DNA of 64,000 nt, from positions 91,482 through 155,481 of IMG/VR virus record IMGVR_UViG_3300025087_000001, one strand, 5' to 3'. A model generated the notes under the pieces. The model was given only the letters and a program-made list of their open reading frames with translations. It was not told where the DNA came from and searched no databases. Position numbers and translations under genes: made by a program. This stretch comes from a virus. This document shows positions 42,138 through 60,179 of this stretch, piece by piece (within the stretch, counting starts at the first letter, position 1; each line of letters begins with the position of its first letter).

Positions 42138-45100
42138 ATGGACGAAAATCAAAAGAAAGAACTAGAAGAGTATAAAAAGAAGATCATATTCGATCCTTTA
42201 AATTCGGCTGAAGAGTTAAGGGATTGGATGGATCTTTTTTTAGATATACGCTTCCCTATGGGGGTAGTTTACCCCACATCTACACATGGGCCCGTCGAAG
42301 CTATGTGGAGAATTTACGAGTTAATGAAGACGGGGGAGAGTGCGGAGATACCTTCTGTAGCTATGCTTGCTAGCCGTGATAGTTATAAGTGTCAGGTCAA
42401 GGGTAGTAAATTATTAACTCCAAATGGATTAGTAAATATAGAAAATATTAAAATAGGAGATATTGTTTGGACAGGTTGGAATTGGAAAAAAGTTACTAAT
42501 TGGATAGATGACGGATTTAAAGACGGAATCAAATTAACTTTAAATAACGGAATAGAACTAACATCAACCCCAATTCATAAATATTGGATATTAAGAAATG
42601 GAACAGAACAATGGTGTCAAGTAAATGAACTGCAAGATAATGACTTAATTTGTCATCAACCCCTAATTGAGGGCAATTGTGTTGGTAATAATCAATGGCT
42701 CTCATTTAAAAAAGAAACGATAGATTCGGCGCATTTCTTTGACCTAACAGTAGAGGACGATCACTCCTATTGGTCTAATGGGTGTATCAGCCACAACACA
42801 CTTTCTGCTGCTGCTCTCGAAGTTTTATTAATGATACATCTTAGAATACCAATGGCTCATATGGCAGCTATTAAGCAACAATCAGCAAAGGCAATTCAAT
42901 ATGTAAGCTCTTTTTTTAGAAAACTTAGGCCTTATTTAGAACACCATGGTTGGAAAAAAAGCTCTGATAGTAAGACATATATTGAATGGATTACAGAAAC
43001 TAACCAAACTGTTTATTTAAACATAGTAACCTGTACGATTCAAGGGGCTAACAGTGAACATGTACCTATTCTGTGTATTGGGAGAAATGTAGATGTAATG
43101 TGTAAAAACTCTAATTCTACTACCAATAGAGTTCGTAGGAACGTATCTGCTATGGCTCTCTATAAAAGAATAATAAGGGGAGACAATGTAGAGGCGTATT
43201 CTCTAAACCACCAAACAGGTTTATTTGAATTTAAAAAAATAACCCATGCTTATAAACAACAGCAAGAGTTATTTGAAGTAACGTTATTGAATGGTAGGTC
43301 ATTACAATTAGGAGCCAGTCATGAAGTTTGTGGTATAGACGGTACATATAGACCACTAAAAGATTGTAAGGTTGGTGATAAATTACTTAAACTAGGAAAG
43401 CAGAGTTCTAAGGTAGATTTGTTAGTAAAAGAAAAGGTGTCCACGGAGTATAGTGTACCAAAAATAGAAACAAGTGAGATTGAACAATTATTACTAGGTT
43501 CTCTATTAGGCGATGGAGGCTGTTATAAAAGAAAGGGGAATAATGCTTATTTTGCAGAACAACATGGTCAAGCCCAAATACAGTATTTAAAATGGAAACA
43601 ATCTATTCTTGAGAAACAATATAAGGTAAGTTTTTACCAAACAAAGCCGGGATACGGATCAACCCCATTATATAGGATGTATACGGGAAATTCACCTTCG
43701 TTAAATGAATGGGCTAATTTTCGTAAAAAAATAGACGAAAAGGTTTGGAGGCTAAACCCATTTGGGTTGGCAATTTGGTTTATGGACGATGGTAGTAACT
43801 CTATGTCTTTAGAGTTCCACACACAGTCTTTTACTTATGAACAGAATGATTTATTAAGACAAGTTCTAAAGAAGAATTTTAACATAGACGTCTCTGTCCA
43901 GTCAAGAAAGAATTACAAGGGTGGAGAGGATTATTGGATACTGCATGGAGGAGTGTCTGAAAAATACAAATTATATAAAATATGTAAAGACTATATTCAC
44001 CCAGACTTAATATATAAATTTAAAAATGTAATTGAAAAGACAATTAGAGTGTGTAAATACTGTGGAAACGAATTTACCACTAAGGAAACTCATAATCATG
44101 CACATAGCTGTTACTCAGTAACTTGTCAAAATATTAATAAAAATCAACTACACATAGGTGAGATATTAAAAATAGAATCAATAGGGATACAGGATTCGTA
44201 TGACTTTACGGTTCAAGACAATAATAATTTTTTTGCTAACCAATATTTAGTCCATAACTGTATTGACGAGGTTGACGTTGTTCAAAACCCAACAGCCCTA
44301 AAAGAAGCGAAGATGATACCGTCTACATATCAAGGGTTTTTCCCTCTCACGGTGTACCTAAGTACCCGTAAGTATAGCGGTGGTCTCATGGAGAAGACGC
44401 TTAAGGAAGTTGAAAAAGCCGGTGGTGAAATCTTAAGATGGAATATCTTAGATGTTTGCGAGAGAATTACTCACGAAACCGCTAAAATAGATGAGCCCAA
44501 AGTTACTCGCTATATTTCCCGTGACCTTCCTATGGAAAATTTATCTCCAGAAGAGTGGGAAGCCCTTAACGACGAGCAAAAAAATAGATATGAAAAATTT
44601 GAAGCATATGCCGGAATAGCCAAACACAAAATGCTATCTGTTATGAGAAACTATCTGGTTGACCGACCACAAGATGCTCATGGGGGTCTGTTTAAATCCG
44701 CCGTTGCCGTCCACAACAACTTTAAAACCACCCCTATCGACATGGCCGACGCACAGTTACTCTGTAACAAACCCTCGGCCTCTGGACTGGTTTATCCTAG
44801 ATTTATAGATGAACTAAACACCCTAACTGCTGAGCAAGCTGTTTTAAGGTTTATCGGAGAAGAGATTCCAGATGGCGTTTTAAATCCTTTTGAGTATTTA
44901 ATTAAGCAACTAAAAGATTTGGGTATTCAATTTATAGGTGGTGCCGACTGGGGATATACGGACTATACTGCCCTAATCGTATTGGCTTTATTACCCAATG
45001 GAGATGTTTGGTTGGTAGACTCTTTTATAGAAAATAAACTAGAATTAGATGATATTGTTAAATACGCCTCTGAATTACAAGAGAACTATGGGATATCCAA

Positions 45101-45614
45101 ATGGTTTGTTGACCAAGCCTACCCTGCCTATATTAAAACTTTTAAAAGAAAAGGAATGAAATGTCCTAAATTTAAAAAAGTAGTTGAGGACGGTATTGCA
45201 GCGGTACAAGGTAAGATAGTTGATAGTAACAATAAAAGATCTTTCTTTGTTTTAAAAACACCGGTCAACCAAATAATTATTAATTCTTTTGGTGAATATC
45301 GTTGGAGTTTAGATGGCAGTGGAGATACAGTTGAAGGTAAGCCATATCACGATACTGATGGAATAGCTGATATTATGGATGCGATTAGGTATCCTTTTCA
45401 GAATCTTTTTTGTAAAAGTGGTGTTAAAATTTCGTGCCACACTGTTAAACCTGAAACTTCTCCTAAACCTGTTAAGGTGGAAACACACAAACCCTTACAG
45501 GAAGTTGCTAAAAACACTAACCAACAAATTATGCAACAACAAATTAGTAGTTTGGCGACAAATAGTCCTAAACCTACTCAAAATGTCAACAAAAAGAAGA
45601 TTCTGTGGATATAA
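42138..45614 (+). CDS. terL: Large terminase subunit precursor with two inteins
   Basis: The precursor is 1158 aa and excision of residues 85-220 and 313-707 leaves a 627-aa packaging motor. The exteins join to give ASRDSYKT, the Walker A motif, and VPILCIDEVDVV, the Walker B motif with its catalytic glutamate. The C-terminal nuclease domain is recognisable from GGADWGYTDYTALI (Asp937 of the precursor) and DGIADIMDAIRYP. Terminase cuts concatemeric DNA and drives it into the prohead using ATP. Both inteins must be removed for ATPase activity. A Lys/Gln/Thr-rich tail of ~50 residues ends the protein. Confidence 0.95.
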   Translation: MDENQKKELEEYKKKIIFDPLNSAEELRDWMDLFLDIRFPMGVVYPTSTHGPVEAMWRIYELMKTGESAEIPSVAMLASRDSYKCQVKGSKLLTPNGLVNIENIKIGDIVWTGWNWKKVTNWIDDGFKDGIKLTLNNGIELTSTPIHKYWILRNGTEQWCQVNELQDNDLICHQPLIEGNCVGNNQWLSFKKETIDSAHFFDLTVEDDHSYWSNGCISHNTLSAAALEVLLMIHLRIPMAHMAAIKQQSAKAIQYVSSFFRKLRPYLEHHGWKKSSDSKTYIEWITETNQTVYLNIVTCTIQGANSEHVPILCIGRNVDVMCKNSNSTTNRVRRNVSAMALYKRIIRGDNVEAYSLNHQTGLFEFKKITHAYKQQQELFEVTLLNGRSLQLGASHEVCGIDGTYRPLKDCKVGDKLLKLGKQSSKVDLLVKEKVSTEYSVPKIETSEIEQLLLGSLLGDGGCYKRKGNNAYFAEQHGQAQIQYLKWKQSILEKQYKVSFYQTKPGYGSTPLYRMYTGNSPSLNEWANFRKKIDEKVWRLNPFGLAIWFMDDGSNSMSLEFHTQSFTYEQNDLLRQVLKKNFNIDVSVQSRKNYKGGEDYWILHGGVSEKYKLYKICKDYIHPDLIYKFKNVIEKTIRVCKYCGNEFTTKETHNHAHSCYSVTCQNINKNQLHIGEILKIESIGIQDSYDFTVQDNNNFFANQYLVHNCIDEVDVVQNPTALKEAKMIPSTYQGFFPLTVYLSTRKYSGGLMEKTLKEVEKAGGEILRWNILDVCERITHETAKIDEPKVTRYISRDLPMENLSPEEWEALNDEQKNRYEKFEAYAGIAKHKMLSVMRNYLVDRPQDAHGGLFKSAVAVHNNFKTTPIDMADAQLLCNKPSASGLVYPRFIDELNTLTAEQAVLRFIGEEIPDGVLNPFEYLIKQLKDLGIQFIGGADWGYTDYTALIVLALLPNGDVWLVDSFIENKLELDDIVKYASELQENYGISKWFVDQAYPAYIKTFKRKGMKCPKFKKVVEDGIAAVQGKIVDSNNKRSFFVLKTPVNQIIINSFGEYRWSLDGSGDTVEGKPYHDTDGIADIMDAIRYPFQNLFCKSGVKISCHTVKPETSPKPVKVETHKPLQEVAKNTNQQIMQQQISSLATNSPKPTQNVNKKKILWI
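42390..42797 (+). mobile_element. Mini-intein 1, inserted in the Walker A motif
   Basis: A 136-aa intein, residues 85-220. It starts with Cys85, has the block A pattern KGSKLLTPNGLVNIENIKIGD, a block B with TSTPIHKYWI, and ends in DDHSYWSNGCISHN, with His219-Asn220 as the splice dyad. The next extein residue is Thr221. It is too short for an endonuclease and lacks LAGLIDADG motifs, so it is a splicing-only mini-intein. The insertion lies exactly between the Lys and Thr of SRDSYK/T. Confidence 0.92.
43074..44258 (+). mobile_element. Intein 2 with a LAGLIDADG endonuclease, inserted in the Walker B motif
   Basis: A 395-aa intein, residues 313-707. It starts with Cys313, ends LVHN (His706-Asn707) and is followed by Cys708 of the extein. 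Two dodecapeptide motifs mark a LAGLIDADG endonuclease: LLLGSLLGDGGCY and GLAIWFMDDGSN. A C-terminal CKYCGNEF ... CYSVTC cysteine module may bind zinc. It can therefore both splice and home. The insertion interrupts VPIL/CIDEVD immediately before the Walker B acidic residues. Confidence 0.93.
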
Positions 45615-52110: not shown

Positions 52111-52465
52111 GCTCAATATGTGGCCAATCAACAAAACTAAAGTTCCTCCCGAGCCTTATTTTGATGTTTTTAGCCTTAGCAATCTCTTCAACTAGATTGC
52201 ACATGTCTTCAAATCTTTTTATATCACTCCAGTCAATCGGGTAGGGCGCCGCATCGACAGCTTCGCTTGGTTTCTTATTATGTTTAGATTGGGGGTATTT
52301 TAACTTACTATTTCCCGATTCAAAAGCCTTATTCTGATCTTCTTCTCCCCGATATCCACATAGTAAACTAACATCTCTTTTTTTAATTAACTCGTCCACT
52401 ATAATTTGCAAATCAGGATGTAATTCCCCTCTTACTTTTAAACTTTTTGGTCCAAACTTGTACAT
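52100..52465 (-). CDS. Endolysin, M15-type L-alanyl-D-glutamate peptidase
   Basis: A 121-aa peptidase that cuts the peptide cross-links of peptidoglycan. Zinc ligands of the M15 family are in SKHNKKPSEAVDAAPYP (His62, Asp71) and DWPHIEL (His116), with SLLCGYRGEEDQN as the family's N-terminal motif. It has no signal peptide, so it needs a holin or similar release. The only holin-like candidate here is at 1640. Its ATG overlaps the stop of the upstream gene, so the two are co-expressed. Confidence 0.9.
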   Translation of the reverse strand: MYKFGPKSLKVRGELHPDLQIIVDELIKKRDVSLLCGYRGEEDQNKAFESGNSKLKYPQSKHNKKPSEAVDAAPYPIDWSDIKRFEDMCNLVEEIAKAKNIKIRLGRNFSFVDWPHIELID

Positions 52466-53277
52466 TAGAACATCTCCTTATTGTTATTATATATTTCTTT
52501 AGCAAGTAAATTAATAGGGTGATCAGGATTTTTAAAATAAAAAGATATTACCCCAAACCAGCCTTCCTCAAAATCCCTATTGATAAACTTAGTACACAGC
52601 TTCCAAGTTAATTTACCGAACCAAGTGTTTTTTACAGTATATAGTCTAACAAAAGCTAGTAATTTCCCGCTAGTTGCTATCCCAGTTATTTTTGTATATT
52701 CCTTACTAGTAATAAAATACCAGATTCGTTCATGTAGCTGTGGTCTAGAATCGTATTTAAAATAGCATGTTAATAAACATTCTATCATTGGTTCCCATAT
52801 GAAAAACTTAGATAAAAACTTATTAGCTAAATATGACCAAAAGATAATGTCCCTTGGATGCATAAGTCTAGACCATCTTGGTTTTTCTGGATAAACATTA
52901 TCAAATCTCCACCAATTATCTTTACCGTGATCGTAAATTTCCTTATGATAGGGTGTGTTTAGTATCTTAGAAAAACAAGCGATTGAATTTATATTGTCGT
53001 GGCTAATTGTCCTAATATTTGTCTTGTCGGGATTTAAAGATTCGTAAGCTCCACGATCATAAAGTCCTTTGACTTTTTGACCTTGAGTATCAAATGTTTG
53101 TAGATTATAAACAATTCTTCTGAAGGTAGTTAAATCATCTTGATTTAGTGTTCCTATTATATCTTTTAGGATATAATAAATCACTAAAAAATGGATTCCG
53201 TTTTCATTTTCTCGGTGATTCGGTATTTTATCTGGCCACAATTCCATGCCATGGGATATATCTATGTAGTTTTCCAT
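52465..53277 (-). CDS. Conserved phage protein encoded with the endolysin
   Basis: A 270-aa protein that I recognise only as resembling hypothetical proteins of other large phages, with a typical start (ENYIDISHGMELWPDKIPNH) and core (YDRGAYESLNPDKTNIRTIS, then HPRDIIFWSYL). It contains conserved His and Asp residues in the first half, including IRTISHDNI, so an enzymatic role is conceivable. The start lies four bases after a class 2 promoter motif, which implies a leaderless late mRNA. It is followed without a gap by the endolysin gene. Confidence 0.6.
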   Translation of the reverse strand: MENYIDISHGMELWPDKIPNHRENENGIHFLVIYYILKDIIGTLNQDDLTTFRRIVYNLQTFDTQGQKVKGLYDRGAYESLNPDKTNIRTISHDNINSIACFSKILNTPYHKEIYDHGKDNWWRFDNVYPEKPRWSRLMHPRDIIFWSYLANKFLSKFFIWEPMIECLLTCYFKYDSRPQLHERIWYFITSKEYTKITGIATSGKLLAFVRLYTVKNTWFGKLTWKLCTKFINRDFEEGWFGVISFYFKNPDHPINLLAKEIYNNNKEMF

Positions 53278-53280
53278 AAA

Positions 53281-53291
53281 TTAAAGATTGC
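53281..53291 (-). promoter_or_regulatory. Class 2 (late) promoter motif of the endolysin operon, leaderless spacing
   Basis: The minus strand reads GCAATCTTTAA. After CTTTA, four bases (ATTT) precede the ATG at 53277, identical in spacing to the site at 32234. It abuts the divergent class 1 promoter for the UvsW-like gene. Confidence 0.65.
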
Positions 53292-53294
53292 TTT

Positions 53295-53305
53295 TGTGGT
53301 ATATA
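53295..53305 (+). promoter_or_regulatory. Extended -10 promoter giving a leaderless UvsW-like mRNA
   Basis: TGTGG then TATATA (53300-53305), five bases, ATG at 53311. No Shine-Dalgarno. The divergent start codon at 53277 is only 33 bases away. Confidence 0.75.
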
Positions 53306-53310
53306 TAGTT

Positions 53311-54795
53311 ATGAAGATTGTTATAACAACGCCTATTAAAGCATATCTAGTTAATTTTACAGAGGAAAACATCAATTGGGTTCGCCAACAATTAACCTTT
53401 ACGAATAAAGATATCGTCTTTCAGATTAGTAAGGTTAAAAAAATGCGGTGGTTAAGGAATAAAGATCCAGATGCTTGGCAGGATAGAATTAATGAATTAG
53501 AATCACAAAAGAAAACCACCCTTTTATTTGAAGATTCAGGTGGTTACTACATTAGACCCGGAAGCGTTCCTTATCTAAAATTAGATATTCCTGTTGAAAA
53601 TCTGGTCGAATATCCTGAATTTAAACCTTATAAATGGCAAAATAGCCTAGATTTAACACCATATCTGTATCAGGTGGGATCAGTTAATAGTTTACTTAAC
53701 GAAAAACATGGAAATATCGAACTTTCTACAGGTAGTGGTAAGTCTTTGATTTTATTGATGTTAGCCCAATTAATGGGGCTAAGAACAGTAGTGGCTACCC
53801 CCTCAAGATCAATATTTATGGAATTATTAGAAAAATTTGAGTATCATTTCGGATCTTTTATGGTGGGCGGTTTTGGGGATGGAAAAAAAGATATTAAAAA
53901 ACCAATTACGATAGCGATTGGTAAGTCACTAACTATGCTTAAAGAGGGGTCTCCTGAGTATAAGTTCTTTGCTGATAAACAAGCTATGCTAATTGATGAA
54001 AGCCATCAATTCGGATCAGAAACCCTTGAAAAAACGTGTCATGGAGCCTTAGCTAACATACCCTATAGAGCTCTTGTATCTGCCACTCAGAGCCGTGGAG
54101 ACGGGGGTGAGATATTGCTGTACTCTATCATAGGAAAAACTGTTTGGACATTATCGATTCAAGACGCTATTGCCCAAGGATATCTATGTCCATTAAAGTT
54201 TAAGGTTATTACTACCTTCTCTCCCTCTACTAAGAAAAAGACAGATCCTATTGAGTGTAAAAGAGAGCACTTTCTTCATAACACCAATATAATAGAAATT
54301 GCCGCTAAAATAGCCAATGCTAGTTGGGAACTTAAAAAAGAATCAACCCTTATATTGGTTGAAGAGCTGTCTCAGATCCAGATGGTATCTGAGCTTTTAA
54401 GAGTTCCTTACGGGTATGTTCACAGTAGTAGTAAAGCAGAAGCCGCCCTATATGGTCTAGATAAGGTTAGCTTACAGGAACAGGTTGATAGGTTTAATAG
54501 AGGGGACAGTAAGATATTAATTGGAACCAAAGCTATTGCTACGGGTACTAATATTTACCCCACACACAATACTATTAATTTAATGGGTGGAAGTTCTGAA
54601 GTTGTCACAAAACAGGGCCCAATGGGAAGGTCTACCAGAAAACTAGAAATTTCCAAATATGCTTCTTTTCATAAACCTAAACCCTTTACGATGATTTACG
54701 ACTTTAGGGTAACTGGACAGCCTATTTTAGAACAACAGTTAAAAAAACGCATAGAATATTACGAAGAAACGGGTGAAACTGTACAATTTTATTAG
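53311..54795 (+). CDS. UvsW-like SF2 helicase
   Basis: A 494-aa helicase of the same size as T4 UvsW (503 aa), which remodels branched DNA and R-loops to switch replication modes. Walker A is LSTGSGKSLILL (Lys144), Walker B is AMLIDESHQF (Asp229-His232), motif III is LVSATQS and motif V-VI is KAIATGTNIYP ... GPMGRSTR. The N-terminal ~110 residues form a small separate domain, as in UvsW. I start it at the ATG at 53311 set by the promoter, and reject longer in-frame starts that would cross the divergent gene. Confidence 0.88.
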   Translation: MKIVITTPIKAYLVNFTEENINWVRQQLTFTNKDIVFQISKVKKMRWLRNKDPDAWQDRINELESQKKTTLLFEDSGGYYIRPGSVPYLKLDIPVENLVEYPEFKPYKWQNSLDLTPYLYQVGSVNSLLNEKHGNIELSTGSGKSLILLMLAQLMGLRTVVATPSRSIFMELLEKFEYHFGSFMVGGFGDGKKDIKKPITIAIGKSLTMLKEGSPEYKFFADKQAMLIDESHQFGSETLEKTCHGALANIPYRALVSATQSRGDGGEILLYSIIGKTVWTLSIQDAIAQGYLCPLKFKVITTFSPSTKKKTDPIECKREHFLHNTNIIEIAAKIANASWELKKESTLILVEELSQIQMVSELLRVPYGYVHSSSKAEAALYGLDKVSLQEQVDRFNRGDSKILIGTKAIATGTNIYPTHNTINLMGGSSEVVTKQGPMGRSTRKLEISKYASFHKPKPFTMIYDFRVTGQPILEQQLKKRIEYYEETGETVQFY

Positions 54796-54800
54796 AATAA

Positions 54801-54811
54801 TATGGTATATA
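54801..54811 (+). promoter_or_regulatory. Extended -10 promoter giving a leaderless sigma-factor mRNA
   Basis: TATGG then TATATA (54806-54811), seven bases, ATG at 54819. It lies directly after the UvsW-like stop codon. Confidence 0.65.
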
Positions 54812-54818
54812 GATATAT

Positions 54819-55868
54819 ATGAGTAAAAAGAATCAATATGATAAAAAATTCCAAGAGCTGGCTATTCAAGTCAACCAAGCAATTATAGACAATGATGGTC
54901 TAATTGGTGACCAAAAAGAACAGGTTGAATTGATGATATCGCTGGAGCGTAAGTTCCAGTACTATGCCCAAAAATACGCAAAAACTAACCAAATATATGC
55001 TAAATTTATAGACTATATATTACACGAAAGTGGCAATATATTAAGTGCTAAGCCCTACTTTAGAGAAAGGTTTACGTCATTTAGTGATAGGATAATATCT
55101 GATTTTAAAGAAAAGAAAGGGAATAATCTCGGTAGATACAAAATAAATTATTTGCTAATTAAATTTATAGTAGATAATTGGGGCGGGCCACTACCAGAAA
55201 AGGTGCAGCACTATTATAACGAATACTTAGAAGCTAGAAGAATTTTAATCGAAAACAACCTACCTCTAGCTATTAATAGGGCTAAATTATTTTATAGAAA
55301 AACCCCCAGATCTCACCTTAACTTATTGGATTTAATAGATATTTGTGTGTGTGGTTTGATTACTGGCATCGATAAATATTGTGGAGACTATACTAGGGTG
55401 TGGCGATCAACCTGTATTGGCAATATGGTCAGCAATATGATTGAGGAGTATTCTAAAACGTTTTTGCGACTATACCCTACAGATAAAAAAGTTCTATATA
55501 GAGCAAATGCTCTTAAATATCGACTTCAAATAGATTCTATTGAGGATCTGACTAAGGCTGTCAATTCGTCTTTTGAAAAAGACGCAACAGAAGGTAAAAA
55601 AATACCAACACTACCGATTTCTGAATCCCATATTAGAACCCTACTTAATGGTGTGGGCTATGTGTCTACCGATAGTAAAATTTCCGAAGATAATTATGAC
55701 GGAGGATCAGAAGAAGGCGTGGGAATATACGATAACACTCCAGATCCAGAACAAGATGTTGAAGATATTGTAACTAAAAAAGACTCTATAGATAAAATCA
55801 TAAATGCGTCCCATGATTTAAATATGGTAGAGAAAAAGATAATTATGCTAAAAGGAGTGGTCTTGTGA
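54819..55868 (+). CDS. Phage sigma factor lacking region 4 (gp55-like)
   Basis: A 349-aa sigma-70-like factor. Residues 139-220 match region 2: ARRILIENNLPLAINRAKLF (helix 2.1), HLNLLDLIDICVCGLITGID (2.2, core-binding) and VWRSTCIGNMVSNMIEEYSK (2.3-2.4, -10 recognition). A region 3-like helix pair follows (ISESHIRTLLNGVGYVSTD). The chain ends at NMVEKKIIMLKGVVL, where the region 4 HTH would normally begin. T4 gp55 is likewise without region 4 and reads late promoters by the -10 only. It is the likely reader of the class 2 motif. Confidence 0.75.
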   Translation: MSKKNQYDKKFQELAIQVNQAIIDNDGLIGDQKEQVELMISLERKFQYYAQKYAKTNQIYAKFIDYILHESGNILSAKPYFRERFTSFSDRIISDFKEKKGNNLGRYKINYLLIKFIVDNWGGPLPEKVQHYYNEYLEARRILIENNLPLAINRAKLFYRKTPRSHLNLLDLIDICVCGLITGIDKYCGDYTRVWRSTCIGNMVSNMIEEYSKTFLRLYPTDKKVLYRANALKYRLQIDSIEDLTKAVNSSFEKDATEGKKIPTLPISESHIRTLLNGVGYVSTDSKISEDNYDGGSEEGVGIYDNTPDPEQDVEDIVTKKDSIDKIINASHDLNMVEKKIIMLKGVVL

Positions 55869-59930: not shown

Positions 59931-60179
59931 ATGATTATAATTTTTAAGTGCAATAACCCCAAATGTCAGGTTGAAATAAAGAAATACTTTAAAAACACTA
60001 CTGATATTCCCCGTAATTTAGATTGTGGTATATGTATGATGGGAAAAATGGAAAGACAATTATCATCCCCATTCTCTAAATCTACAGAGGTTATTGATAA
60101 TGGCTTAAGACAGAGACAGTTAGAAATCAATAAGGATATTGTTGAGAGTGAAAGACAAAAAGTAATAGAAAAAGGATAA
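59931..60179 (+). CDS. Small zinc-ribbon protein (FmdB-like)
   Basis: An 82-aa protein. Residues 1-40 form a zinc ribbon with the pairs FKCNNPKC and DCGICMMGKM, similar to FmdB-type regulatory ribbons; the rest is a charged helix. I start it at the ATG at 59931, since in-frame codons upstream overlap the promoter. It ends 2 nt before the SbcC-like gene. It may bind nucleic acid or a polymerase, but this is not shown. Confidence 0.65.
   Translation: MIIIFKCNNPKCQVEIKKYFKNTTDIPRNLDCGICMMGKMERQLSSPFSKSTEVIDNGLRQRQLEINKDIVESERQKVIEKG

What the first reader, a model, noticed from the sequence alone, without database searches (positions are those of the whole stretch)
53275..53313. Divergent start codons only 33 bp apart, both apparently leaderless and served by different promoter classes
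Between the minus ATG (53277) and plus ATG (53311) there is room only for a class 2 element (53281-53291) and a class 1 extended -10 (53295-53305). Neither gene can have a leader or a Shine-Dalgarno. It is a natural early/late switch: the lysis operon on one side and the UvsW-like helicase on the other, with polymerase footprints that must exclude each other.
Basis: partly seen in the sequence, partly recalled or inferred. Interest (0 to 1): 0.7.

Follow-up and report, generated by a model that had tools for sequence, protein, structure and literature searches.

The report
Two leaderless phage genes, back to back
In the genome of an uncultured phage, a helicase/sigma-factor gene block and the block carrying the cell-lysis enzyme start only 33 letters apart in opposite directions, each from its own kind of promoter and apparently with no untranslated leader, and the leaderless start of the helicase gene is conserved in most relatives examined.

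Summary
ATG 53277 (-) and ATG 53311 (+) are 33 bp apart, with a class 2 element (AATCTTTA, minus strand, 53282-53289) and a class 1 extended -10 (TGTGGTATATA, 53295-53305) between them and no Shine-Dalgarno for either gene. Both motifs are real genome-wide promoter-like classes (37 sites vs 8.7 expected, 43 vs 7.7). The -10 cores end 5-6 nt from the start codons, so RNA should begin at or within about 2 nt of each ATG. The strongest evidence is new: in 29 of 39 non-redundant relatives an extended -10 ends 6-9 nt before the helicase start (shuffles: mean 3.1, max 9) and only 2 have an SD; groEL starts from the same loci show the opposite (0/22 and 17/22). The next plus gene is a sigma-70-family protein with its own abutting -10. 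The class 2 site is conserved in close relatives, but the leaderless start on that side is variable: most have an SD leader there. So leaderless initiation is well supported on the helicase side and likely on the lysis side; the early/late switch is plausible but inferred. No transcript data exist. New variant of known things: leaderless phage genes plus overlapping divergent promoters.

The parts
53311..54795 (+). SF2 helicase gene (XPB/UvsW type), predicted leaderless from class 1 promoter
   Evidence: phrog_16 E 8e-41
53295..53305 (+). class 1 extended -10 (TGTGGTATATA), -10 hexamer 53300-53305 ends 6 nt before ATG
   Evidence: 17.2 bits; conserved position in relatives
53282..53289 (-). 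class 2 core AATCTTTA, ends 5 nt before ATG 53277
   Evidence: 18.2 bits; conserved in sister loci
52465..53277 (-). 270-aa orphan gene, predicted leaderless from class 2 promoter
   Evidence: homologue only seen frameshifted in L021
52100..52465 (-). endolysin (phrog_465), own Shine-Dalgarno TAAGGAG inside the 270-aa gene
54819..55868 (+). sigma-70-family protein (region 2 match, no detectable region 4.2)
   Evidence: Mx1 homologue annotated sigma factor
54803..54811 (+). class 1 extended -10 (TGGTATATA) ending 8 nt before the sigma-like gene's ATG, no SD
   Evidence: 16.7 bits
53312..53319 (-). weak second class 2-like site (AATCTTCA) overlapping the helicase start codon
   Evidence: 12.0 bits

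Best explanation
This is a compact divergent promoter. A sigma-70-type extended -10 promoter fires rightward and starts RNA at or within about 2 nt of the helicase ATG, giving a leaderless mRNA for the helicase and reading on into the sigma-like gene, which also has its own abutting -10. A phage-specific -10-only promoter (AATCTTTA) fires leftward and starts RNA at the ATG of the 270-aa gene, reading on into the SD-led endolysin. Because both RNA polymerase footprints cover the same ~70 bp, strong use of one side blocks the other. Most likely the class 1 side is used first by host polymerase, the sigma-like product (or another late factor) then activates class 2 promoters, and class 2 occupancy here dampens the class 1 side. 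Shown by sequence: starts, motifs, spacings, conservation, sigma homology. Inferred: actual RNA 5' ends, timing, which sigma reads class 2, and the feedback.
For: Both motifs are enriched genome-wide and the focal spacing is the leaderless spacing: class 1 distances to starts split into 5-8 nt (no SD at any of the five, though the start called at 60039 is doubtful) and mostly 16-31 nt (SD in nearly all) with a tail of farther sites; class 2 into 5 and >=17. Helicase -10 at 6-9 nt in 29/39 relatives vs 3.1 by shuffling, SD 2/39; groEL control 0/22 and 17/22. Class 2 core kept 10-23 bp from the class 1 -10 in window, L015, L017, L019, L021, L023, L045, L059. YAATCTTTA exceeds its reversed control in sister genomes (31/10, 27/7, 12/1). 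Neighbouring protein is sigma-70 family: phrog_351 E 5e-7; 59 of 60 PDB sequence matches are named sigma factors, best 7e-4; Foldseek top ranks nearly all sigma-70 family. No conserved -35 in either class, which fits a sigma lacking region 4.2.
Against: No transcript ends. The link between the sigma-like protein and class 2 is positional only. Class 2 is not clearly enriched in the more distant relatives (8/4, 9/6), which still carry the sigma homologue, so motif and sigma are not tightly coupled across the family. The class 1/class 2 functional split rests on few annotated genes. The minus gene may use the weaker upstream class 2-like site. Relatives share ancestry, so 29/39 overstates independent evidence.
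Confidence: 0.6

Rival explanations
1. Both sites are real promoters and the genes are leaderless, but there is no switch: the overlap is just genome compaction, the two directions fire largely independently, and timing is set elsewhere.
For: E. coli bidirectional promoters show little interference at basal activity (PMC12825309). The class 2-class 1 spacing varies 10-23 bp in sisters and the divergent partner changes to groEL in the distant clade.
Against: The class 1/class 2 opposition is kept in the sister loci, and the plus side carries a sigma-like gene.
Confidence: 0.28
2. One or both mRNAs have ordinary leaders: transcription starts farther upstream inside the neighbouring gene (e.g. 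at the 53312-53319 class 2-like site for the minus gene) and the start codons are reached by SD-independent initiation.
For: Second class 2-like site 12.0 bits. SD-led leaders for the minus gene in most sisters.
Against: Sharp 6-9 nt spacing peak for the helicase in relatives; no class 1 site listed within the minus gene on the plus strand; no SD in the would-be leader.
Confidence: 0.12

Closest known systems
Leaderless (TA-led) bacterial genes, e.g. Deinococcus-Thermus '-10 adjacent to ORF' (PMC12340547, PMC3160421)
   Same: -10 hexamer a few nt before the start codon, no SD, predicted RNA start at the ATG
   Different: Here in a phage whose other genes are mostly SD-led; extended -10; a second, non-TATAAT class also gives leaderless starts
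Phage lambda cI mRNA (leaderless; PMC3160421, PMC9031893)
   Same: Leaderless phage gene
   Different: There a single repressor gene; here a helicase (and often a sigma-like gene) across a family of large phages (contigs up to ~177 kb)
E. coli bidirectional promoters (PMC12825309)
   Same: Divergent -10 elements so close that polymerase can bind one way at a time
   Different: Those share symmetric sigma-70 elements with starts typically 10, 18 or 23 bp apart; here two different motif classes with predicted starts ~35 bp apart
T4 late promoters with gp55 (PMC2988020)
   Same: 8-bp -10-like box, no -35, read by a reduced phage sigma
   Different: Box is AATCTTTA; use by the local sigma-like protein is not shown; no clamp coupling tested

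Membership tests
Leaderless mRNA genes | -10 element ~6-9 nt before start codon | tested here: met
Leaderless mRNA genes | no Shine-Dalgarno | tested here: met
Leaderless mRNA genes | RNA 5' end at the start codon | not testable with these tools
   needs dRNA-seq or primer extension
Bidirectional promoter (Warman/Grainger) | overlapping divergent promoters | tested here: met
   cores 10 bp apart
Bidirectional promoter (Warman/Grainger) | shared symmetric sigma-70 elements, starts ~10-23 bp apart | tested here: not met
   different motif classes, predicted starts ~35 bp apart
Sigma-70 family protein (54819-55868) | region 2 homology | tested here: met
Sigma-70 family protein (54819-55868) | region 4.2 (-35 binding) | tested here: inconclusive
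   protein ends within a weak FliA region-4-like match; no Pfam match
T4-type late promoter | -10-like box without a -35 | tested here: met
   class 2 profile
T4-type late promoter | read by the phage sigma | not testable with these tools
   needs in vitro transcription

The most novel reading that the evidence does not exclude
A self-limiting early/late switch in ~35 bp: a leaderless early operon encodes the late sigma factor, and that sigma's own late promoter overlaps and shuts the early one while starting a leaderless lysis-side mRNA.
Probability: 0.25. Interest if true: 0.8.

Novelty: new variant of a known kind. Interest (0 to 1): 0.58.

Why it matters
Leaderless mRNAs are known in phages (lambda cI) but mostly as single cases. 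A family in which a helicase gene, and often the neighbouring sigma-like gene, keep a -10 placed right at the start codon, while most other genes use Shine-Dalgarno leaders, would be a natural system for asking why a virus keeps leaderless initiation for particular genes, for example to keep translation going when ribosomes or initiation factors change during infection. The overlapping promoter classes give a testable minimal switch.

Tried and rejected
Nucleotide search of named phages: no match. 270-aa protein: no phage or IMG/VR relative found by direct search and no Pfam or PHROGs family; a frameshifted homologue appears only in L021. Pfam finds nothing meaningful for the sigma-like protein. 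Mx1, the only named phage with the helicase-sigma pair, has the genes packed head to tail with no abutting -10. Start misannotation was considered and rejected for both genes. A literature search for Mx1 found nothing.

Full report
What is there. The window is the last 64 kb of a 155,481-bp virus contig. At 53275-53313 two genes diverge: a 494-aa SF2 helicase to the right (ATG 53311) and a 270-aa orphan to the left (ATG 53277), with 33 bp between. The orphan overlaps by one base an endolysin gene (phrog_465) that has its own SD. Behind the helicase, 24 bp away, lies a 349-aa protein of the sigma-70 family: phrog_351 E 5e-7; a 29-sequence profile finds named sigma factors as 59 of 60 PDB sequence matches, best E 7e-4, over region 2; Foldseek rankings are nearly all sigma factors, at low TM-scores.

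Are the motifs real? Fetching the rest of the contig and a simple gene call (starts chosen with a small SD bonus, so SD counts are slightly inflated) gave upstream k-mers without assuming any promoter: AAGGAG (SD), TGGTATA and AATCTTTA stand out. Matrices built from these find 43 class 1 and 37 class 2 sites at >=12 bits against 7.7 and 8.7 in simulated sequence. Most upstream sites sit 16-60 nt before SD-led genes. Neither class has a -35. The focal pair scores 17.2 and 18.2 bits.

Leaderless? Distances from -10 to start split in two: among sites >=14.5 bits, class 1 has 5, 6, 6, 6, 8 and then 16 upward, class 2 has 5, 5 and then 17 upward. The focal genes, the sigma-like gene, a homing endonuclease (24625, minus), a 142-aa gene (36968) and a 438-aa gene (w-45631) are in the short group. 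The decisive test is comparative: 51 IMG/VR loci, one MAG contig and Mx1. Of 39 non-redundant helicase upstreams (proteins mostly 40-57% identical to the window's), 29 have an extended -10 ending 5-10 nt before the start (in practice 6-9), against a shuffled mean of 3.1 and maximum of 9 in 500; 2 have an SD. groEL starts from the same loci: 0 of 22 and 17 of 22. The sigma-like gene shows the same in part: 12 of 32 by strict best-site scoring vs 2.0 by shuffling, others SD-led. Phylogenetic non-independence is not corrected. In one sister (L045) the helicase start is GTG, which is usually a poor leaderless start in E. coli (PMC9031893).

The lysis side. The class 2 core survives between endolysin and helicase in the sister loci, 10-23 bp from the class 1 -10. 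Most sisters have an SD leader there. It is leaderless in the window, in L045 (the endolysin itself, CAATCTATAAAGTATG) and in L021 (a GIY-YIG endonuclease). So the promoter is conserved in the sister clade while the leaderless junction on this side is labile, twice associated with an extra gene placed before the endolysin.

Mechanism. By geometry, two polymerases cannot occupy both promoters at once, but interference needs strong activity (PMC12825309). Class 2 before structural genes and the endolysin block, and class 1 before groEL, helicase, sigma-like, endonuclease and small genes, fits late versus early, with an exonuclease gene as an exception on the class 2 side. That the neighbouring sigma-like protein reads class 2 is a hypothesis modelled on T4 gp55 (PMC2988020); against tight coupling, the motif is not clearly enriched in distant relatives that keep the protein.

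Noticed in passing
window 32231 (minus); L021 around 3955: GIY-YIG endonuclease starts sit directly behind class 2 cores without a leader: a 21-aa remnant in the window and a full 244-aa gene in L021.
   Followed up: partly
window 54803-54819 and relatives: The sigma-like gene alternates between leaderless (-10 at 6-8 nt) and SD-led forms across the family.
   Followed up: partly
L006, L007, L026, L052 and other distant loci: In the distant clade groEL, not the endolysin, is divergent from the helicase, with a recurrent TATATCA element (TGATATA on the minus strand) in the gap.
   Followed up: no
window 42138-45614: Terminase-like ORF of 1158 aa (630 aa in L004) with what look like intein insertions; not tested.
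   Followed up: no
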